64,000 nt of DNA from Alphaproteobacteria bacterium (GTDB lineage: Bacteria; Pseudomonadota; Alphaproteobacteria; Caulobacterales; Hyphomonadaceae). Both the position numbers and the translations under genes were made by a program. Numbering within the stretch: position 1 is the stretch's first letter; each line of letters opens with the position of its first letter. The stretch covers positions 1 to 64,000 of the forward strand of contig JAGWYJ010000011.1 of the NCBI GenBank assembly GCA_018969425.1. Direction: 5' to 3'. This document shows, one piece after another, positions 49,295-61,231 of the stretch. The notes below the pieces were generated by a model that saw only the letters and a list, made by a program, of their open reading frames with translations, did not search any database and was not told the DNA's origin.

Positions 49295-50962
49295 ATGTCC
49301 TCGGCTCTTCAGGCCGAAGTGCTCAGCATTCGCGAGATCTTCGGATCGACAGCCGACCTTCGCGTCCCTCCCTATCAGAGGGGCTTCGCGTGGGAGGACG
49401 CCGAAACCAGCGCTCTGCTCGCCGATCTTCTCGAAGCCTTCGAGACCGACACGATCTACTTCCTGGGCGCCATTGTGGTCATTCACCCCAAGGCGCGAGG
49501 CCCCTCCGACGTTGTTGACGGACAGCAGCGCCTGACGACGCTCACCATCATGCTCGCCGTCCTTCGCGATCTGGCCCCTGAGGAGAGCGAGGCGGCTGAT
49601 CTGCACGCGATGATCGGACATGAAGCGCTGATCTGGGGTGAGCGCAGACGATGGAGGATCACGCTCAATCATCTCGACACCGCCTTCTTCCGCACCCATG
49701 TGCAAAAGCGGGGCGCAACTCTCAATCTTGACGAGATCGAAGCGGCGGCCGCCTCCGAATCCCAGCTCCGCATCGCGTCGGCGGTGCGCGCCATCCACGA
49801 CGAACTCCGGGAGATGGCGCCCGAAGAACGCATCAGGTTCGCCCGCTGGCTCGCACAGAACGTATCGTTCGCGAGGGTCCGGGTCGGCGAGCACAATTTG
49901 GGATACAAGGTCTTCCTCGTGCTCAATCAGCGCGGCAAACCTCTGTCGGATCACGATATTCTGAAGTCCGCCCTGTTTGAACAGGCCGGATTTTCCGACG
50001 AGGAGGCGATCGCCAATTCAAGCCGATGGAACGAGTTCTCCGGGCGACTGGGATCGGCCGCTTTCGAGGGAATGCTGAAGCAGATCCGTTTTCTTTATGA
50101 CCGGTCGATGAAAGGGGAGTTCATAGACGGTCTGATGAAATCCGTGACCGCCCGCATGCCGGTGTCGCGGTTCATCAACGAGGTTCTGCCGCGCTTCGTC
50201 GACGCCTACGACACCGTGTCGACCGGAGAGGTTCACGACATCGACCCGGGTGCGGAGGCTCTCAAGAGCCTGTGTTACCTGAGGTCGATCCATCACGAGA
50301 GCTGGAGGGCTCCAGCCATCAAGTTCCTGATCGAGGGCCCCGGCGACCCTGAAACCTCCGCGCGCTTTTTCTCCCGGCTCGAGCGCCTCGCCTACATGAT
50401 GCAATACTCGATCAAGGAGCGCGATTACCGCCACAAGCGCTATCGTCGTCTCATGGACGCCATGGACACGCCGGGAGCGGTCTTCGCACCGGGCTCTCCG
50501 CTTGACCTCTCGCGTGAGGAAGAGATCCGTTTTCTCGAAAGGCTCAGAGGGCGCTTCCCCAATTTCAAGCAGAGGCGGGCGCTGGTCATGCGCCTCAACG
50601 CTGCGGTTCCCGGGGGCGCCCCCCTCGCCCCGGAGAGCGACGCGACCCTTGAGCACATCTTTCCGCGAACCCTGCCCAAGACCTCGGTCTGGCTGAAGCA
50701 CTGGACCTCCTCGGAGGACATTGCCGAACTCACCGAATGTCTCGGTAATTTCACGCTTCTGCCGGATGCGGTGAACCAGGCGGCGGACCGGGCGGACTTC
50801 GAAACGAAGAAGGCCCTCTATTTTCCGGACGGAGGGCCTGCGGCCTTCGCCCTGTCGGAGAACCTGCGGAATGTGGCGGCGTGGACGCCCGAAGAGGCGC
50901 GCCGGAGACGGGACCTCATGGTGGCTCATCTTGCGCGGGCCTGGGATCTCGCTGCGGGCTGA
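49295..50962 (+). CDS. DUF262/DUF1524 (GmrSD-like) protein
   Basis: 555 residues. N-terminal DUF262 domain: VPPYQRGFAWE (about 24-34) and the ParB-like DGQQR at 75-79 with QRLTTLTIML after it, and NQRGKPLSDHDILKS. The C-terminal DUF1524 HNH-like domain has ATLEHIFPRTL (His454) and the LGN signature CLGNFTLL about 30 residues later. This is the arrangement of GmrSD-type Type IV restriction enzymes and relatives, NTP-dependent nucleases that attack modified DNA, fused into one chain. No methylase or other defence gene is adjacent. AAGGGAG precedes the start. Confidence 0.87.
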   Translation: MSSALQAEVLSIREIFGSTADLRVPPYQRGFAWEDAETSALLADLLEAFETDTIYFLGAIVVIHPKARGPSDVVDGQQRLTTLTIMLAVLRDLAPEESEAADLHAMIGHEALIWGERRRWRITLNHLDTAFFRTHVQKRGATLNLDEIEAAAASESQLRIASAVRAIHDELREMAPEERIRFARWLAQNVSFARVRVGEHNLGYKVFLVLNQRGKPLSDHDILKSALFEQAGFSDEEAIANSSRWNEFSGRLGSAAFEGMLKQIRFLYDRSMKGEFIDGLMKSVTARMPVSRFINEVLPRFVDAYDTVSTGEVHDIDPGAEALKSLCYLRSIHHESWRAPAIKFLIEGPGDPETSARFFSRLERLAYMMQYSIKERDYRHKRYRRLMDAMDTPGAVFAPGSPLDLSREEEIRFLERLRGRFPNFKQRRALVMRLNAAVPGGAPLAPESDATLEHIFPRTLPKTSVWLKHWTSSEDIAELTECLGNFTLLPDAVNQAADRADFETKKALYFPDGGPAAFALSENLRNVAAWTPEEARRRRDLMVAHLARAWDLAAG

Positions 50963-52693: not shown

Positions 52694-53620
52694 TCACTTT
52701 GAACCTGTCATCGCGTCAGGATAGGAGCGGCAGGATTGCCGCAGCGCAGTCATTTCCTCTGCGATCTGGAGAACACGCCGGATTGCCGGGCGTCGCTTGC
52801 GGTCATTTCGACAGGCGATATAGACGGAGACCCGAGCCGAGGCCGGTTCGCAGGCGATCGAGAGAATTCCGAGCCTATAATCCGGCGGACATTCGCTGGC
52901 GAACATGAAGCTGACTCCAAGGCCGCGCGCCACGCACTCCCTGATCATCTCGCGCGTGTGAACCTCCATCGTCCTCAGCGGCGCAATGTCTTCAGCCTCC
53001 AGAACCTGACTAATCGTCGCTCGCGTCCTCGAGGCCGGCTCCCGCGTCAATAGCGTCAGACGCTCCAGCTGCCGAAGGTCGAACATGTCGCCGAAATCGT
53101 CACGAAGACCGGCAGGAACCACGGCGACCAGGACGTCTTCAAAAAAGGGGCGGTAGCTGTAGTCATTGCGGCCGACCGGCTCGCAGACAATAGCGAGGTC
53201 AATCGCAGCGGCCATCAGAAGCTGGTTTGTACCCGCCGCGTTCGATACGCTGACCTTGAAATCCAGGTCGACGTTCTGGTGACGGCAACGAGCGATCAGA
53301 TCGGCCGCCAGGGCTGGACTATCCGTCCCAATTCTAAGAAGCCCGCCACCGTCAGAGGCCCCTGAGCCAAGGCTTTCGTCGATTTCGCCGGCGAGTTCAA
53401 ACAGCTTATGGACGCGCTCAAAGAGTTCCTCACCCTCCCTCGTGAGAATTAGAGGCGGACGGCTTGTCGCGAAGAGACGCACGCCGTGCCGATCCTCCAA
53501 TGCACGGATCTGCTTTGAGAGGGTTGATTGGGACAGATTCAACCTACTGGCTGCACGGGTCATGTTCTGATCCGCAGCTACGGCCAGGAAAGAACGCAGA
53601 TGTTGAAAGTTCACAGACAT
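52694..53620 (-). CDS. LysR-family transcriptional regulator of the phosphonate locus
   Basis: 308 residues. N-terminal winged helix-turn-helix: FQHLRSFLAVAADQNMTRAASRLNLSQSTLSKQIRALED. The C-terminal effector domain (about 90-300) is of the periplasmic-binding-protein type and ends in a Cys/Arg-containing tail. It is divergently transcribed from the oxidoreductase gene with a 204-bp gap. LysR proteins often regulate a divergent operon using a small-molecule effector; here that could be an aminophosphonate. Base use is slightly AT-richer than the core genes. Confidence 0.88.
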   Translation of the reverse strand: MSVNFQHLRSFLAVAADQNMTRAASRLNLSQSTLSKQIRALEDRHGVRLFATSRPPLILTREGEELFERVHKLFELAGEIDESLGSGASDGGGLLRIGTDSPALAADLIARCRHQNVDLDFKVSVSNAAGTNQLLMAAAIDLAIVCEPVGRNDYSYRPFFEDVLVAVVPAGLRDDFGDMFDLRQLERLTLLTREPASRTRATISQVLEAEDIAPLRTMEVHTREMIRECVARGLGVSFMFASECPPDYRLGILSIACEPASARVSVYIACRNDRKRRPAIRRVLQIAEEMTALRQSCRSYPDAMTGSK

Positions 53621-53824: not shown

Positions 53825-54961
53825 TTGACCTACGATGTCGCTGTCGTCGGTATGGGCGTGGTAGGCCTTGCGCATGCCTACGCAGCCGCAAGATCGGGCG
53901 CCCGGGTGGTTGTGATCGACCGAGAGCCCAAGGCTCTCGGGGCCAGCATCCGAAACTTCGGTTTTATCACCGTCTCCGGGCAGGCTCGCGGCGAAATGTG
54001 GTCTGCGGCCATGCGATCCCGCGACATCTGGGAGGCTATGGCGCCCGAGGCGGGCATACCCATCGTCCAGCGTGGCCTGAGCCTACTGGCTCACAGGGTT
54101 GAGGCGGAGAGGGTCCTTGAGGCCTTTCTGGCTACCGAGATGGGAGCGGAATGCGAACTTCTGTCTGAGAGGGAGTATCGATCCAGGTTCACAGGTTTCG
54201 ACCCGACCCCGTTCAGAACGGCGCTCCTGAGCCCACACGAACTCAGGGTGGAGCCCCGCACGGCCTTGCCGGCCCTCGCGCGATGGCTGCATGAGCGCTG
54301 GAAGGTGAAGTTCAGGACGGTCACAGCCTGCCTGTCGGCAAGCCCGGGCGGGGTCGAGACCTCAAGCGGCCCCATCGAGGCTTCCATTGTCTTCATTTGC
54401 CCAGGAGGAGACTTGTCGGGGCTTTTCCCGGAGACTCTCGCCCGCCGAGGGGTGACCCGGTGCAAGTTGCAGATGCTTCGTCTCCGGCCGAACGGCATGC
54501 GTCTGCCGACGCCTGTCATGGCCGACCTGTCTCTGGCTCGCTACGAGGGGTATGCAGAGCTTGAGGCGTCCAAAGACCTTCTCGCTCGACTAAAGCTGGA
54601 AAGGCGGGAAGCCATAGATGCAGGCGTTCACCTGATCGTGGTTCAGTCTGAAGACGGATCGATCGTCGTCGGCGACAGCCATGTCTACACTGATGCCCCC
54701 GATCCCTTCCAGTCCCTTGAATACGACCACCTGATCCTGCAGGCATTCTCGGATTCCTTTGAAAGCGCTCCCGGCGAAGCGATTGAACGCTGGACCGGCG
54801 TTTATCCATGGTCCCCTCAGGGCCCCTGGTTCTCGGAAGAGGTCGCCTCCGGTGTTCACATGACGGTCGTGACCTGCGGCGCCGGCATGTCGACCGCATT
54901 CGCTCTTGCCGAAACGGTTGTTTCCTCAGCTCTCCAGACGACACCAGGACCTTTGGCATGA
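53825..54961 (+). CDS. FAD-dependent oxidoreductase, TIGR03364-like (aminophosphonate catabolism)
   Basis: 378 residues, starting with TTG 53825, with GGGAGG 8-13 bases upstream. The FAD-binding GxGxxG is GMGVVG near the N-terminus (YDVAVVGMGVVGLAHAYAAA), then SIRNFGFITVSGQARGE, and C-terminal RWTGVYPW and TCGAGMSTAFALAE. It is a DAO-fold amine oxidase/dehydrogenase like the TIGR03364 family, which recurs in phosphonate gene clusters. Its stop overlaps the phnX start by 4 bp (ATGA). With no PhnW transaminase here, it plausibly converts an aminophosphonate to phosphonoacetaldehyde. The exact substrate is inferred. Confidence 0.8.
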   Translation: MTYDVAVVGMGVVGLAHAYAAARSGARVVVIDREPKALGASIRNFGFITVSGQARGEMWSAAMRSRDIWEAMAPEAGIPIVQRGLSLLAHRVEAERVLEAFLATEMGAECELLSEREYRSRFTGFDPTPFRTALLSPHELRVEPRTALPALARWLHERWKVKFRTVTACLSASPGGVETSSGPIEASIVFICPGGDLSGLFPETLARRGVTRCKLQMLRLRPNGMRLPTPVMADLSLARYEGYAELEASKDLLARLKLERREAIDAGVHLIVVQSEDGSIVVGDSHVYTDAPDPFQSLEYDHLILQAFSDSFESAPGEAIERWTGVYPWSPQGPWFSEEVASGVHMTVVTCGAGMSTAFALAETVVSSALQTTPGPLA

Positions 54962-55815
54962 CCAATGACATCAGAGCCGTCGTTTTCGACTGGGCCGGAA
55001 CGATGGTCGACTTCGGATCCCGCGCGCCGATCGGGGCGTTCGCACAGGCGTTCGCAGAGCGGGGTGTAGACCTTCACGAGCACGAGATCCTTGCCGATAT
55101 GGGAAGGGCAAAACGCGAACACATCGTTCGTCTCCTTGAGCGCCCGGAAGTCGCTGAGAGATGGCGAATGTGCACGGGAAGCCGCTGGACCAGTCTCGAT
55201 GTTGATCAGCTCATGATCAGACTCGAGCCGCTGATGCGATCGTCTATCGAGATGCACGGGCAACTGATTCCCGGAGCCTGCGAGAGTGTCGAGGCACTGA
55301 GATCAGCCGGCACGAAGATTGGATCCACGACGGGCTATACTCAGGCCATGATGCCGCCCCTGCTTCGAACCGCAGCCGATCAGGGATATGTTCCAGACGC
55401 GGTGTTCTGCTCGGACGACGCGCCGCTGGGAAGGCCCGCACCGTTTCTTATCTGGAAAGCGCTGCTGAGCCTGGAGAGATGGCCCATCCGACAGTGCGTG
55501 GTAGTGGACGACACCTGCACAGGCGTCGAGGCGGGTCGTGCGGCAGGCGCCTGGACTGTGGGTTGCGCGATCTCCGGCGCGCTGGTGGGGCTGACGCAGT
55601 CTGACTGGGAGGCTCTCGACGGTGGCGAGAAGTCTCGTCGCTTCTATGCCGCAAGAGCTGCGCTTGAGGCGTCCGGCGCCGACTTTGTGATCGAGACCGT
55701 CGCTCAGCTTCCAGCTGCGATCGCAGAGATCCGCAACCGCCTATTGGACGGCGGCATGCCAGGCCTGCCCCCTGCCGATCTTATCGTGACGGACAAGTCA
55801 CAATCGGACAACTGA
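54958..55815 (+). CDS. phnX: Phosphonoacetaldehyde hydrolase (phosphonatase)
   Basis: 285 residues. HAD-superfamily phosphonatase, hydrolysing the C-P bond of phosphonoacetaldehyde to acetaldehyde and phosphate. Asp11 nucleophile in VVFDWAGTMVDFG (the A of DWAGT is typical for phosphonatase). Cap-domain Schiff-base Lys52 in MGRAKREHI. Later motifs GSTTGYTQAMM and CVVVDDTCTGVEAGRAAGAW. It overlaps the oxidoreductase stop by 4 bp. The following DUF5690 gene starts 49 bp after. Confidence 0.93.
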   Translation: MTNDIRAVVFDWAGTMVDFGSRAPIGAFAQAFAERGVDLHEHEILADMGRAKREHIVRLLERPEVAERWRMCTGSRWTSLDVDQLMIRLEPLMRSSIEMHGQLIPGACESVEALRSAGTKIGSTTGYTQAMMPPLLRTAADQGYVPDAVFCSDDAPLGRPAPFLIWKALLSLERWPIRQCVVVDDTCTGVEAGRAAGAWTVGCAISGALVGLTQSDWEALDGGEKSRRFYAARAALEASGADFVIETVAQLPAAIAEIRNRLLDGGMPGLPPADLIVTDKSQSDN

Positions 55816-55864: not shown

Positions 55865-57175
55865 ATGAGTGATCCTGTCTCAGCGATGCCTGCTCCATGC
55901 TCGCGCAGGAGGCGGTACCGAACCTTTATGATGATCGCGGCTGGCCTGTCAGCCTTCTCTGCCTATTTTTCAATGTATGCCTTTCGTAAGGCCTTTGCAG
56001 CCGGATCCTATGGCGGGGTGGAAGGATGGACGGCTCTACTTGACTTCAAGACCGCTGCAATCATTGCTCAGGTCGCCGGTTACGCGCTGTCGAAGGCGGC
56101 GGGAGTGACATTCATCGCCGAGCTGTCTTCGCGAAGACGAGGACTGCTCATTATCGGTCTCATTTCGGCTTCCTGGCTCGCCCTTGTCGCCTTCGCGTGT
56201 CTTCCACCCTCCTGGAAGATCGTAGCGATGGTGCTGAACGGGTTTCCTCTGGGGATGATCTGGGGCCTGATCTTCAGCTATCTTGAAGGCCGTCGTGAAT
56301 CTGAGTTCCTCGGAGCGGTGCTGTGCGCGAGTTTCATCGTAGCTTCCGGGGCTGTGAAGTCGACGGCGATGTGGCTGATGACAGTGATGAAGATTCCGGA
56401 GTTCTGGGCGCCTGCGTGCACGGGCCTTCTGTATGCGCCGCTTTTGGTGGCGTCCGTCGTTATCCTGAGCCGGACGCCTCCTCCTAATGAGGAGGACGTC
56501 CGGGACCGGACGCTTCGAAAGCCCATGATGAGAGCCGATCGTCAGGCATTTCTTACCGCCTTCGGGCCAGGCCTGCTTGTCCTGATTTTGGCCTACGTCA
56601 TCTTCACGGCGCTCAGAGATTTTCGTGACAATTTCGCGACCGAGCTATGGCTCGAACTTGGAGAGGGGGGATCCGCCTCAATCTTTACTCTGAGCGAACT
56701 ACCGGTTGCGATCGTCACCTTAACCGCATTGGCTGGTCTGATGATGATCCGAGATAATGTCCGAGCGCTCCTGCTCATACACGGCGTCTGCGGCATGGGA
56801 GCCCTTCTGATCGGTCTTTCGACATTCGCCTATCAGGCTGACCTTATCAGCGGTCTGTCCTGGATGATCACAACGGGCGCTGGTCTGTATCTCGCCTACA
56901 CTCCTTTCAACGCTATGCTGTTCGACCGTCTGATCGCGGCGGCGCGCTGGTCAGGCACGGCTGGCTTTCTTATCTATCTGGCGGATGCATCGGGTTATGC
57001 TGGAACCGTTTCGCTCCTGATCTGGAAGAGCCTGGCGGAGAAAAATCTGGACTGGCTGAGCTTCTATTCGGGACTGTCATATTTCGGCAGCGGGGCCGGC
57101 CTCATCCTCATGTCTGTGTCCATGCTTTTTTTCGTCCGCAGGCTGAGAGCGATGGGTCCCCAGACCGGGGATTAA
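55865..57175 (+). CDS. DUF5690 family MFS-like membrane protein
   Basis: 436 residues, about twelve hydrophobic segments. The opening YRTFMMIAAGLSAFSAYFSMYAFRKAFAAGSYGG and QVAGYALSKAAGV resemble the DUF5690 family. Major-facilitator-like, with the two-half arrangement. It sits between phnX and a TonB receptor, suggesting an inner-membrane transporter for the same substrate. No transport substrate is known to me for DUF5690, so this is an inference from position. Confidence 0.75.
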   Translation: MSDPVSAMPAPCSRRRRYRTFMMIAAGLSAFSAYFSMYAFRKAFAAGSYGGVEGWTALLDFKTAAIIAQVAGYALSKAAGVTFIAELSSRRRGLLIIGLISASWLALVAFACLPPSWKIVAMVLNGFPLGMIWGLIFSYLEGRRESEFLGAVLCASFIVASGAVKSTAMWLMTVMKIPEFWAPACTGLLYAPLLVASVVILSRTPPPNEEDVRDRTLRKPMMRADRQAFLTAFGPGLLVLILAYVIFTALRDFRDNFATELWLELGEGGSASIFTLSELPVAIVTLTALAGLMMIRDNVRALLLIHGVCGMGALLIGLSTFAYQADLISGLSWMITTGAGLYLAYTPFNAMLFDRLIAAARWSGTAGFLIYLADASGYAGTVSLLIWKSLAEKNLDWLSFYSGLSYFGSGAGLILMSVSMLFFVRRLRAMGPQTGD

Positions 57176-57288
57176 AGGCGACGTCGGAATGACAACCATG
57201 AACAAGAGCCATTGGCGTGTGTCGCATCCCACGTGCGAGGAGCCTACTCGTCGCTAAGCGGCATGGGTTCGAACACAGGGGTGATAGT

Positions 57289-59751
57289 GTGAGGTCTGTC
57301 TCGAAAATTCTCGCTGGGGCCACGCTGGCCGTCTCGATTGCAACCAATCCGTCCCTGGCGCAGGAAGGTGCGTCAGGTCCCGCTACGCCGGAGTCATCTT
57401 CGGGAGAAGATGTCGTGGTGGTTACGGGCGAATCTATCTCTCGAACAAACAACGTCGTCAGCGCCGATTCGATCGCGGCGATACCGGCTGCCCAGAACAT
57501 TCTTGACGCGATCAAGCTCGTACCAGGCGTTCAGATTCGCGGCGCTGACTCGTTCAACAATGATCCATGGTCATCGGCGATCAATATTCGCGGCTTCGAA
57601 GTCAATCTGCGTTCCTCGAAGATTGGTCAGACGCTTGACGGCGTTCCTCTGTTCAACGCGTCTTATTATCTCGCGGGAGCGCCGGCTCAGAAGTTCATCA
57701 TAAATGAAAATGTCGAGTCCATACAGGTCATTCAGGGAGCCGCCGATGTCGGATCGCCCTCGAGTTCAGCACTCGGGGGAACCATCGCCTACGTCTCCCG
57801 CGACCCGTCGGAAGAGGCCTCCGGCCTTATCCGCGCGACCTTTGGAGACTTCAACAGCCAGCGTATCGCGGCCCGGTACGACTTTGGACGTTTTCTCAGC
57901 AATACAAGAGGTTATCTTGCGCTGACGAAACTCGACAGCGGTATCTGGCCGCATGGCGGATCGACCCCTGCCGGCATCGAGCAATTCTCCCTGTCCGGAA
58001 AATCGATCAGCGAGTTCGGGTCGCTGACCGTAACCGCCTACGGATCATACAATGAAAGCGATGACGATCCCATTATTGAATCCACTCGCCTGTTCATCGA
58101 ACAGACAGGTTATAAGGTTGATGGATCAAGCTCGGTCTTCAACACCCAGGATGCGACGAAGAATGAGTATTGGGCCGATGAGTGGGCATCAATACGCACC
58201 AATAAGTTCGGCTACCTGAATTTCGATTATCAGACCGCCACCTCCCTTCGCCTGCAGGCGACGCCATATATTCAGAGTAACCAGGGCGTCGGAGAGTTCC
58301 TCCCCCCGTTTCAGGAACCTCGTTTCGTCAACACCGTCTCTCCGGGCGCGCTCAGGCAGGTTCTTCTGGGAGGATCGCGTATCCGAACCACCCGAGCCAA
58401 CGCATCGGGCCAGGCGGTCCTGCCCTACGCTAACGCCACGACCGAAAGGGTTTACACAGCCCTCAACGGCGCCACGGTGCGATCTTCCGAGTGCTTTAAT
58501 CCAGACAATACGGTCAAGACCAGCGCGCTGGGTCAGAGCGTCTGCTCGTCAGCTCAGTCCTACCGAAACTCGCAGTATGAACACACCCGCATGGGTGTCG
58601 TTGCGGACGCGTCGGTCGAACTCGGCGACCACGCGGTCACAGCCGGGGTCTGGATCGAGCGCCTCAACCGCGACTTCAGCCGAGTCTGGAAGCCCTATCT
58701 CGATATTCGTCTGGGCCCCATCGCCCTCAACAGCGTCTACCGAGCTGACTTCTGGCAGGGGTTCAGCACAGACATCGTCAAGTTTCATGTTTCCGATACA
58801 TGGCGTGTTTCGGATCAGCTGACCGTGAATGGCGGGCTTCAGTCCTTCAAGGTCGACATCTCCGGACGGTCGATCGAGGATAAGAACATTGGCCCGAACG
58901 GCGAGCTTCTGGGGGCGAGCCGCCTCTCAGTCTCTTCCGACAGCGATCTTCTGCCATCTCTCGGAGCCGTCTACGAGGTCAACGACAGCCTGCAGCTCTT
59001 CGCAGGCTATTCAAGAAACTTCGGGGCCATTGGAGACTGGGCGCTCGAAAAGACCGGGACCGATCTCTCACGCCTAAAGCCTGAAACCGCCGACAGCGTG
59101 GACGTCGGGCTTCGTTACAGGAGCGATCGTCTTCGCGGAGCCCTCAGCGCCTACCAGATCCGGTATCGGGATGCGATCGTCTTCCTGACTAACGACTTCG
59201 CCGTCGGCACGCCGGGGATCAACTATTCAGCTGGCACCGGAGGGACGTATTTCAACCTGTCGGGAGGAGTGGACTCAAGTGGCTTCGAGGCAACGGCGGA
59301 GTATGATATCAGCGATCAGCTGACGGCCTACGGCGCGATCGCAAAGCCCGACGCGACCTATACCTCGTCCTTCAGAGCTGCTTCCTACGGGGGCAATCCG
59401 GTGATTGTCGATGCGGGGGACTCGGTCGCAGGGACGCCCGATCTGATCGCCTCGGCCTCTCTCGACTATCTCAATGGTCCCTTCCGGGGCGTCCTGAGCG
59501 TTCGTCATGTCGGAGAAGCGGCGGGAGATGCTCCCAATACTAAGGCCCTGATCATGCCAGCCTATACAGTGGTGGACCTGTCCGCCTCCTACACGATGGA
59601 GCTTGCATCCGGGCAGACGGCCGAGTTTTCCGCCGCCGTCTCAAACCTGACGGATGAACGCTACATCGCGGGTATGCTCGATGAGTTCACCCAGCGCTTT
59701 ATTCCTTCTGCTCCCCGAACAGCTTCCGTCACGGTATCGTTCGGGTTCTGA
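57289..59751 (+). CDS. TonB-dependent receptor of the phosphonate locus
   Basis: About 820 residues if GTG 57289 is the start (frame open to 57217). Signal peptide (KILAGATLAVSIATNPSLA), a TonB-box-like DVVVVTG stretch, plug (about 70-180: IPAAQNILDAIKLVPGVQIRG, DGVPLFNASYYLAG, SIQVIQGAADVGSPSSSALGG), then a barrel ending in Phe (ASVTVSFGF). Outer-membrane uptake of a scarce substrate, energised by TonB. It closes the operon, followed by a strong terminator. Confidence 0.88.
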   Translation: MRSVSKILAGATLAVSIATNPSLAQEGASGPATPESSSGEDVVVVTGESISRTNNVVSADSIAAIPAAQNILDAIKLVPGVQIRGADSFNNDPWSSAINIRGFEVNLRSSKIGQTLDGVPLFNASYYLAGAPAQKFIINENVESIQVIQGAADVGSPSSSALGGTIAYVSRDPSEEASGLIRATFGDFNSQRIAARYDFGRFLSNTRGYLALTKLDSGIWPHGGSTPAGIEQFSLSGKSISEFGSLTVTAYGSYNESDDDPIIESTRLFIEQTGYKVDGSSSVFNTQDATKNEYWADEWASIRTNKFGYLNFDYQTATSLRLQATPYIQSNQGVGEFLPPFQEPRFVNTVSPGALRQVLLGGSRIRTTRANASGQAVLPYANATTERVYTALNGATVRSSECFNPDNTVKTSALGQSVCSSAQSYRNSQYEHTRMGVVADASVELGDHAVTAGVWIERLNRDFSRVWKPYLDIRLGPIALNSVYRADFWQGFSTDIVKFHVSDTWRVSDQLTVNGGLQSFKVDISGRSIEDKNIGPNGELLGASRLSVSSDSDLLPSLGAVYEVNDSLQLFAGYSRNFGAIGDWALEKTGTDLSRLKPETADSVDVGLRYRSDRLRGALSAYQIRYRDAIVFLTNDFAVGTPGINYSAGTGGTYFNLSGGVDSSGFEATAEYDISDQLTAYGAIAKPDATYTSSFRAASYGGNPVIVDAGDSVAGTPDLIASASLDYLNGPFRGVLSVRHVGEAAGDAPNTKALIMPAYTVVDLSASYTMELASGQTAEFSAAVSNLTDERYIAGMLDEFTQRFIPSAPRTASVTVSFGF

Positions 59752-59950: not shown

Positions 59951-60715
59951 ATGTCGCTGTTCGATCTTTCAGGAAAATCCGCCCTCATCACCGGTTCGAC
60001 CAAGGGGATCGGCAAAGCCATCGCTGAACAGTTCGCCGTCCACGGCGCCCGGGTGACGATCTCCTCGAGGAAGCCCGGCCCCTGCGAAGAGGTGGCCGGG
60101 GACATCAACGCCCGCCACGGGGCCGGGACGGCGATCGCCTGCCCGGCGAATATCTCTTCAAAGGACGACCTGCAGCGACTGGTCGACGAGACGAACTCGG
60201 CCTTCGGCAAGATCGACGTCGTCGTGTGCAACGCCGCCTCCAACCCGTATTACGGGCCGATGTCGGGGATCAACGACGAACAGTTCATGAAGATCCTTTC
60301 GAACAACATCATCTCGAACAACTGGCTGATCCAGATGGTCGCCCCGCAGATGATCGCCCGCAAGGAAGGCTCGATCATCATCGTCTCCTCCATCGGCGGC
60401 CTGCGGGCCTCAACGGTCATCGGAGCCTACTGCATCTCGAAGGCCGCCGACTTCCAGCTGGCGCGCAACCTCGCCGCCGAGCTGGGACCGCACAATATCC
60501 GCGTGAACTGCATCGCTCCGGGCCTGATCAAGACCGACTTTGCACGAGCGCTCTGGGAAAACCCCGACCAGAAGGAAGCCCGGGAGGCGGAGACCCCTCT
60601 GCGTCGCATCGGAGAGCCGGACGATATCGCCGGGGCGGCCGTTTACCTGGCGTCCCGGGCCTCAGCATTCACCACGGGACAGACGATCGTTTGCGACGGC
60701 GGCGTCACCATCTAA
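59951..60715 (+). CDS. Short-chain dehydrogenase/reductase
   Basis: 254 residues from ATG 59951, whose spacing to AAGGGAG (59938-59944) is right; ATG 59945 touches the ribosome site. Classical SDR: TGSTKGIG (TGxxxGxG), NAAS block, catalytic Ser in IVSSIGG, and Tyr/Lys in YCISKAA. C-terminal GQTIVCDGGVTI. NAD(P)-linked. Substrate unknown; it is a few dozen bases from the thioesterase gene and may be cotranscribed. Confidence 0.9.
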   Translation: MSLFDLSGKSALITGSTKGIGKAIAEQFAVHGARVTISSRKPGPCEEVAGDINARHGAGTAIACPANISSKDDLQRLVDETNSAFGKIDVVVCNAASNPYYGPMSGINDEQFMKILSNNIISNNWLIQMVAPQMIARKEGSIIIVSSIGGLRASTVIGAYCISKAADFQLARNLAAELGPHNIRVNCIAPGLIKTDFARALWENPDQKEAREAETPLRRIGEPDDIAGAAVYLASRASAFTTGQTIVCDGGVTI

Positions 60716-60760
60716 TCGTTCCCACCCGCCTGCTGTCTCCTTGTCCGGACCTGCGACCCC

Positions 60761-61231
60761 ATGACCGACGCCGTCATCGACCCGCTTGTCGCCCCGCGCA
60801 TCCGCGGGTTTCTGACCGGCGAACTGCCGCCTGCACACCGGAATCTGGGCATCCGCCCCGATCTCTGGGTCAAGGAGGTCGAGAAGGGGCGCGTTCTTTA
60901 CCGATGGCCCAATGACGGATCCCGGGACATCGGTTCCGGCCGGGTCTTCGGGGGCTGGATTGCGGCCCTGTCCGACAATGTGGTGTCCCTGTGCATGGCC
61001 ACCGCCCTTGAGGACGGAGAGGGGTTCACCACTCAGGACCTCCAGGTGAAGATCTTCCGCCCCGTCTCGGGAGATCTGATCGAGATCGAGGCCTGGGTGA
61101 AGAACCGTTCCCGGACGACTGGGTATGTGGAGGCCGACTGGCGCCTCCCGAATGGCAAGATCGCGGTGAAGGTGCTCTCCTGGAAGGCCATCCGACCGAG
61201 CGAAAGTTTTCGAATGCGCGAACCGGGATAG
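60761..61231 (+). CDS. PaaI-family thioesterase
   Basis: 156 residues, hot-dog fold. VFGGWIAALSDNVVSLCMATAL matches the HGG(xxxx)AD region of PaaI-type acyl-CoA thioesterases, with Asp in the ALSDN helix. The rest gives a typical alpha-helix/beta-sheet. Preceded by the SDR gene (46-bp gap), hinting at fatty-acyl or aromatic-CoA metabolism. Confidence 0.85.
   Translation: MTDAVIDPLVAPRIRGFLTGELPPAHRNLGIRPDLWVKEVEKGRVLYRWPNDGSRDIGSGRVFGGWIAALSDNVVSLCMATALEDGEGFTTQDLQVKIFRPVSGDLIEIEAWVKNRSRTTGYVEADWRLPNGKIAVKVLSWKAIRPSESFRMREPG

What the first reader, a model, noticed from the sequence alone, without database searches (positions are those of the whole stretch)
53825..54961. Flavin oxidoreductase in place of PhnW may produce phosphonoacetaldehyde
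In the classical route PhnW transaminates 2-aminoethylphosphonate. Here the only enzyme upstream of PhnX is a DAO-fold flavoprotein (GMGVVG FAD site, SIRNFG and GAGMSTAFALAE blocks), translationally coupled to it by overlap. Flavoproteins of this family are known to recur in phosphonate clusters; I infer oxidative deamination or N-demethylation-like chemistry.
Basis: inference. Interest (0 to 1): 0.55.

Follow-up and report, generated by a model that had tools for sequence, protein, structure and literature searches.

The report
Flavin oxidase feeding phosphonate-cleaving enzyme
This is an aminophosphonate oxidase of an already described kind that takes the place of the usual transaminase before a phosphonate-splitting enzyme, and next to it lies a transporter of unknown function that keeps company with such enzymes and is probably their uptake system.

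Summary
Window 53825-54961 encodes a complete TIGR03364/DAO-fold flavoprotein whose stop overlaps the start of a true phnX (ATGA). The genome (scored 99.98% complete) has no phnW and no C-P lyase gene above threshold. The idea is already in print: Zangelmi et al. 2023 (iScience, PMC10590968) named this family PbfD, showed that it oxidises N-methyl-AEP and AEP to phosphonoacetaldehyde, and described a pbfD-phnX pathway without phnW. So the flavoprotein is a new member of a known kind; its own substrate remains untested.

My surveys make the substitution a rule in this order: of 249 genomes, PhnX and PbfD occur in exactly the same 23 and PhnW in none.

The less expected part is the next gene, DUF5690, a 12-helix MFS-fold protein found in no paper searched. 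It occurs in 22 of the 23 PhnX/PbfD genomes and in 9 of the other 226. Among 80 DUF5690 loci, 61 carry PbfD and/or PhnX within about 10 kb. It also sits beside phnX-phnW in three Bacteroidota plasmids, in one confirmed phnWYA cluster, and near phosphocholine phospholipase C in 30 of 80 loci. I infer an inner-membrane importer of aminoalkyl phosphonates/phosphates; transport is untested.

The parts
52694..53620 (-). LysR-family regulator, divergent from the catabolic genes; best NCBIfam match is phn_lysR (TIGR03339) but below its cut-off
   Evidence: 163.6 bits, cut-off 341.1; a related LysR gene stands at the same place in L035, L036, L041, L043, L092, L098, L101, L109
53825..54961 (+). PbfD-type (TIGR03364) FAD-dependent aminophosphonate oxidase, TTG start
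54958..55815 (+). phnX, phosphonoacetaldehyde hydrolase, overlapping the previous gene by 4 bases (ATGA)
55865..57175 (+). DUF5690 protein, 12-helix MFS-fold membrane protein; inferred importer of aminophosphonates
57217..59751 (+). TonB-dependent outer-membrane receptor, probably the outer-membrane step of uptake (inferred)
   Evidence: related receptor near the cluster at over 600 bits in L033, L035, L040, L073, L074, L092, L098, L101

Best explanation
A small, probably inducible catabolic unit for aminoethylphosphonates. The TonB receptor and the DUF5690 protein bring the substrate in (inferred). The PbfD flavoprotein oxidises the C-N bond of N-methyl-AEP and/or AEP with FAD and probably O2; the imine hydrolyses to phosphonoacetaldehyde with release of methylamine or ammonia (shown for family members, inferred here). 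PhnX then splits phosphonoacetaldehyde into acetaldehyde and phosphate (shown for the family; catalytic residues present here). No PhnW was found. The divergent LysR protein probably senses the substrate (inferred).
For: TIGR03364 and TIGR01422 well over their cut-offs; overlap of the genes; phnW and phnJ not found in a genome scored 99.98% complete. Family (105 genomes): PbfD over cut-off in 7, PhnX in the same 7, PhnW in 1 other genome. Order (249 genomes): PbfD and PhnX in the same 23, PhnW in 0. Model of the flavoprotein (pLDDT 92.8) is closest to glycine oxidase, Z 37.1, rmsd 2.7, 336 aligned. Published activity of two PbfD enzymes (PMC10590968).
Against: No assay of this protein. The two assayed PbfD enzymes are only about 30% identical to each other and differ 26-fold in efficiency on plain AEP (130 against 3400 per M per s), so which substrate matters here cannot be read from sequence. 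PbfD also occurs next to phnW (L116 and, by tblastn, L081 and L082), so its presence alone does not prove replacement. The LysR protein and the TonB receptor miss the specific family cut-offs.
Confidence: 0.85

Rival explanations
1. The enzyme serves N-methyl-AEP (or another N-alkyl aminophosphonate) only and leaves plain AEP essentially untouched, so it does not replace PhnW but gives the bacterium a different diet.
For: All assayed PbfC and PbfD enzymes prefer N-methyl-AEP; one PbfD is 18-fold better on it than on AEP (2300 against 130).
Against: All 23 PhnX-bearing genomes of the order (of 249) have PbfD and none has PhnW; phnW-less clusters go with the AEP-active type in the paper.
Confidence: 0.3
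2. Another aminotransferase of the genome makes phosphonoacetaldehyde and the flavoprotein has an accessory role.
For: Aminotransferases can be promiscuous (established knowledge).
Against: No PhnW above cut-off; PbfD and PhnX occur together without exception in 249 genomes.
Confidence: 0.07
3. It is an ordinary amino-acid oxidase (glycine, sarcosine or N-methyltryptophan oxidase) that lies beside phnX by accident.
For: Nearest folds are glycine and sarcosine oxidases.
Against: ThiO 58.5 bits against cut-off 250.8, N-methyltryptophan oxidase 50.9 against 257, TIGR03364 386.7 against 285.1; pairing with phnX in 22 of 23 genomes; the assayed PbfD enzymes ignore sarcosine.
Confidence: 0.03

Closest known systems
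PbfD (TIGR03364, 'HpnW'), FAD-dependent aminophosphonate oxidase (PMC10590968)
   Same: Family model far over cut-off, DAO fold, gene directly upstream of phnX, no phnW in cluster or genome.
   Different: No sequence of the two assayed enzymes was at hand, so identity to them and the PbfD1/PbfD2 placement were not measured; activity untested.
hpnW-phnX operons of Achromobacter (PMC11203657, passages read)
   Same: LysR gene, flavin oxidase in place of phnW, phnX.
   Different: Those strains keep a phnW elsewhere and have an HD-domain oxygenase (PhnHD) in the cluster; no DUF5690 is mentioned in the passages read.
Classical PhnW-PhnX pathway
   Same: PhnX and its intermediate.
   Different: Oxidative instead of PLP-dependent deamination; no phnW found.
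AepP / GlpT-type organophosphate:phosphate antiporters (PMC8316502, passages read), compared with DUF5690
   Same: MFS fold, single-gene permease beside AEP-degrading genes; R41 and K77 of DUF5690 align with R45 and K80 of E. coli GlpT.
   Different: No phmmer match to any solved structure up to E = 1; own Pfam family; second GlpT arginine (R269, recalled) not aligned with R251. AepP's own sequence was not at hand.

Membership tests
PbfD / TIGR03364 | Score over the curated model cut-off | tested here: met
   386.7 bits, cut-off 285.1
PbfD / TIGR03364 | PF01266 fold of amine oxidases | tested here: met
   PF01266 138.6 bits; glycine oxidase Z 37.1, rmsd 2.7, 336 aligned
PbfD / TIGR03364 | Gene in an AEP-degradation cluster | tested here: met
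   Overlaps phnX
PbfD / TIGR03364 | Falls in the PbfD clade (PbfD1 or PbfD2) of the published tree | not tested
   Reference sequences not available; own tree holds no assayed enzyme
PbfD / TIGR03364 | Oxidises N-methyl-AEP (and AEP) to phosphonoacetaldehyde | not testable with these tools
   needs an enzyme assay
PhnX, phosphonoacetaldehyde hydrolase | TIGR01422 over cut-off | tested here: met
   303.2 bits, cut-off 220
PhnX, phosphonoacetaldehyde hydrolase | Nucleophile Asp and Schiff-base Lys (roles recalled) | tested here: met
   D11 and K52, 59 of 59 aligned; both align in 3iru
PhnW-dependent pathway | A phnW gene in cluster or genome | tested here: not met
   no match over cut-off
Glycine oxidase ThiO | TIGR02352 over cut-off | tested here: not met
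   58.5 of 250.8 bits
phn_lysR regulator (TIGR03339) | Score over cut-off | tested here: not met
   163.6 of 341.1 bits, though the best NCBIfam match
Organophosphate:phosphate antiporter family, for DUF5690 | MFS fold, closest to OPA members | tested here: inconclusive
   Foldseek ranks 1-6 are all human SLC37A4/G6PT1; by VIA the best is SLC37A4, Z 33.6, rmsd 3.2, 365 aligned, but other MFS families follow at 31-32
Organophosphate:phosphate antiporter family, for DUF5690 | Sequence-profile kinship | tested here: inconclusive
   hhalign against GlpT/UhpT/UhpC: score 34.4, E 0.0013, probability only 18%; LacY control 13.0, E 0.66

The most novel reading that the evidence does not exclude
DUF5690 (PF18943) is an uncharacterised family of single-gene inner-membrane importers for zwitterionic aminoalkyl phosphonates and phosphates (AEP, N-methyl-AEP, phosphocholine, perhaps phosphoethanolamine). 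It serves three different AEP pathways (pbfD-phnX, phnX-phnW, phnWYA) and phospholipid head-group scavenging, in two phyla, in places teamed with a dedicated TonB receptor.
Probability: 0.65. Interest if true: 0.55.

Novelty: new member of a known kind. Interest (0 to 1): 0.35.

Why it matters
It shows that in this bacterial order the phosphonatase pathway appears to run on an oxidase alone: surveys that use phnW as the marker of AEP degradation would miss every one of the 23 carriers found among 249 genomes. It also gives a testable function to a family (DUF5690) that is annotated as unknown and, in gut Bacteroidota, stands beside phnX and phnW.

Tried and rejected
A distant transaminase: the only PhnW-model match in the genome lies in an ORF among Suf-type genes and is a cysteine desulfurase by eye; rejected. 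C-P lyase as the real route: phnJ not found. The SDR and thioesterase genes downstream (59951-61231) as pathway members: found beside the cluster at high score only in the near-identical genome (L037/L040); rejected. A claim that GlpT's second phosphate-binding arginine is conserved in DUF5690: dropped, because in the profile alignment it falls four residues away from R251. DUF5690 as strictly bound to phosphonate genes: rejected; 19 of 80 loci have neither PbfD nor PhnX, and 11 of the 30 order-level loci looked at had no PbfD, PhnX or phospholipase C in the DNA taken, six of them from one genus. Background frequency of phospholipase C per 20 kb was not measured. PDB sequence search for the DUF5690 protein gave nothing up to E = 1.

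Literature: searches for DUF5690 and PF18943 gave 0 papers each; TIGR03364 gave 2; aminoethylphosphonate with TonB-dependent gave 10 papers, of which I saw listing and abstract starts only.

Full report
What is there. NCBIfam places it in TIGR03364 at 386.7 bits against a cut-off of 285.1; Pfam places it in DAO. Its TGA overlaps the ATG of the next gene (ATGA at 54958-54961). That gene is a true phosphonoacetaldehyde hydrolase: TIGR01422 at 303.2 bits, cut-off 220; the 'PhnX-like' model TIGR03351 scores only 86.1 of 218.9. D11 and K52, the positions of nucleophile and Schiff-base lysine (roles recalled), are present in 59 of 59 aligned PhnX sequences. Around the pair lie a divergent LysR gene (52694-53620), a DUF5690 gene (55865-57175, 485 bits) and a TonB-dependent receptor (57217-59751).

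Is phnW missing? In the window's own genome (3.25 Mb, 91 contigs, scored 99.98% complete) neither PhnW model reaches its cut-off; the single weak match (23 and 26 bits over about 70 residues) is a 387-aa ORF next to Suf-type genes, read by eye as a cysteine desulfurase. PhnJ of C-P lyase is not found (the E. coli control rings). In the window's family (105 genomes) TIGR03364 passes its cut-off in 7, PhnX occurs in the same 7, DUF5690 in 6 of those and nowhere else, and PhnW in one genome, which is not one of the 7; that last hit (471 bits) shows that the PhnW search works. In the order (249 genomes, drawn evenly) PhnX and PbfD occur in exactly the same 23 genomes and PhnW in none. The tool warns that one search had no positive anywhere; the positive control is. 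In 22 of 23 PbfD lies directly upstream of PhnX on the same strand; in the other (G578) they lie about 4 kb apart on opposite strands. Related genomes are not independent, so Fisher values describe association, not probability of chance.

What it does. Zangelmi et al. 2023 (PMC10590968; abstract, sections 8, 15 part 1 and 20, and passages read) purified two PbfD enzymes: both oxidise N-methyl-AEP, and also AEP, to phosphonoacetaldehyde, using O2, with methylamine or ammonia as the other product and no formaldehyde. The Mariniblastus enzyme works on AEP only fourfold less well, and its genome apparently lacks phnW; the authors list PbfD2 plus PhnX as a third AEP pathway. They also quote the TIGR03364 description, so the hypothesis is older still. 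The Achromobacter paper (PMC11203657, passages) describes the same replacement of phnW by 'hpnW' in operons. The predicted structure (53 sequences, pLDDT 92.8) is closest to glycine oxidase (Z 37.1, rmsd 2.7, 336 aligned residues, 20% identity), which fits oxidation of a small amine; it says nothing about the substrate.

Relatives. In a tree of 62 sequences the window protein and its 97% identical twin in an uncultured alphaproteobacterium (L040) group with six sphingomonad sequences (support 98/93). By gene order those six lie in clusters with a divergent LysR gene, then PbfD, PhnX and DUF5690, with the TonB receptor behind it in four of them (one, L109, only as a partial match at the contig end). 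A separate group holds Caballeronia, Proteus and Cupriavidus sequences; a PhnW homologue lies near one of the three (L191). The tree holds no assayed enzyme, so PbfD1/PbfD2 placement is open.

The neighbour DUF5690. A pattern-based scan with the window protein gave 166 relatives, of which the best 80 loci were kept, up to 10 kb each side. Of 80, 53 have both PbfD and PhnX, 7 PbfD alone, 1 PhnX alone, 19 neither; several contigs are short. In the evenly drawn order sample DUF5690 occurs in 31 of 249 genomes: in 22 of the 23 with PhnX/PbfD and in 9 of the 226 without; in 19 of the 23 it lies on the same contig within 10 kb of the pair. In a sample of 299 genomes of the phylum it occurs in 6, so it is rare overall. 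It is not tied to PbfD chemistry. In three Bacteroidota plasmids (Parabacteroides, Bacteroides, Phocaeicola) it stands next to phnX and phnW (tblastn for the unannotated third). In L116 it stands beside PbfD, PhnW (509 bits), PhnY (TIGR03250, 871 bits) and PhnA (TIGR02335, 600 bits), and tblastn finds PhnW in L081, L082 and L095 too. In 30 of 80 loci a phosphocholine-type phospholipase C homologue is present, in 8 of them without PbfD or PhnX; three such proteins, one from each of L052, L058 and L061, were checked and pass TIGR03396. A phnR-like GntR regulator precedes DUF5690 in L061 but scores below its cut-off. Phosphocholine and AEP are both small zwitterionic amines with a phosphorus acid group, so one importer family for both is a simple reading; it is inference.

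Fold of DUF5690. The model (48 sequences, pLDDT 87.0) is a 12-helix MFS fold; Foldseek's six best PDB matches are all human SLC37A4/G6PT1, an organophosphate:phosphate antiporter. VIA-align puts SLC37A4 first (Z 33.6, rmsd 3.2, 365 aligned) but other MFS families within two units, so the fold shows MFS, and the OPA kinship is only suggested. Profile comparison with GlpT/UhpT/UhpC scores 34.4 (E 0.0013, probability 18%) against 13.0 for LacY; R41 and K77 fall on GlpT R45 and K80. R41, K77 and R251 are invariant in 51 of 51 sequences, three Bacteroidota ones included. 7 of 48 family members match MFS_1 weakly.

Verdict. The flavoprotein is a new member of a known kind and its replacement of PhnW is known in principle. 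The surveys turn it from one odd cluster into the rule of an order. The most open and most useful lead is the transporter next door.

Noticed in passing
window 55865-57175; L040-L119; L137, L138, L174: DUF5690, a family of unknown function, is strongly linked to phosphonate-degrading genes of three different pathway types and in two phyla.
   Followed up: yes
L052, L058, L061 and 27 other loci: DUF5690 loci often carry phosphocholine-type phospholipase C, in 8 of 80 loci without PbfD or PhnX; the control genome of Caulobacter vibrioides has DUF5690 but no PhnX.
   Followed up: partly
window 57217-59751: TonB-dependent receptor of unknown ligand behind DUF5690; relatives stand near the same cluster in several sphingomonads. 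A receptor for an aminophosphonate or its conjugate would be unusual.
   Followed up: partly
L139:4123-4689 and L134:5085-5666: HD-domain genes (in L139 annotated as phosphonate degradation HD-domain oxygenase) stand beside pbfD-phnX in Comamonas and Asticcacaulis plasmids.
   Followed up: no
L195:3168-5083: In Gloeocapsa a TIGR03364 protein lies behind a HAD hydrolase-like gene among C-P lyase and AEP-transport annotations: a different partner from PhnX.
   Followed up: no
G469 (order survey): The one genome of 23 with pbfD-phnX but no DUF5690; its transporter was not looked for.
   Followed up: no
window 49295-50962: Large ORF that looks by eye like a DUF262-type protein; not tested.
   Followed up: no
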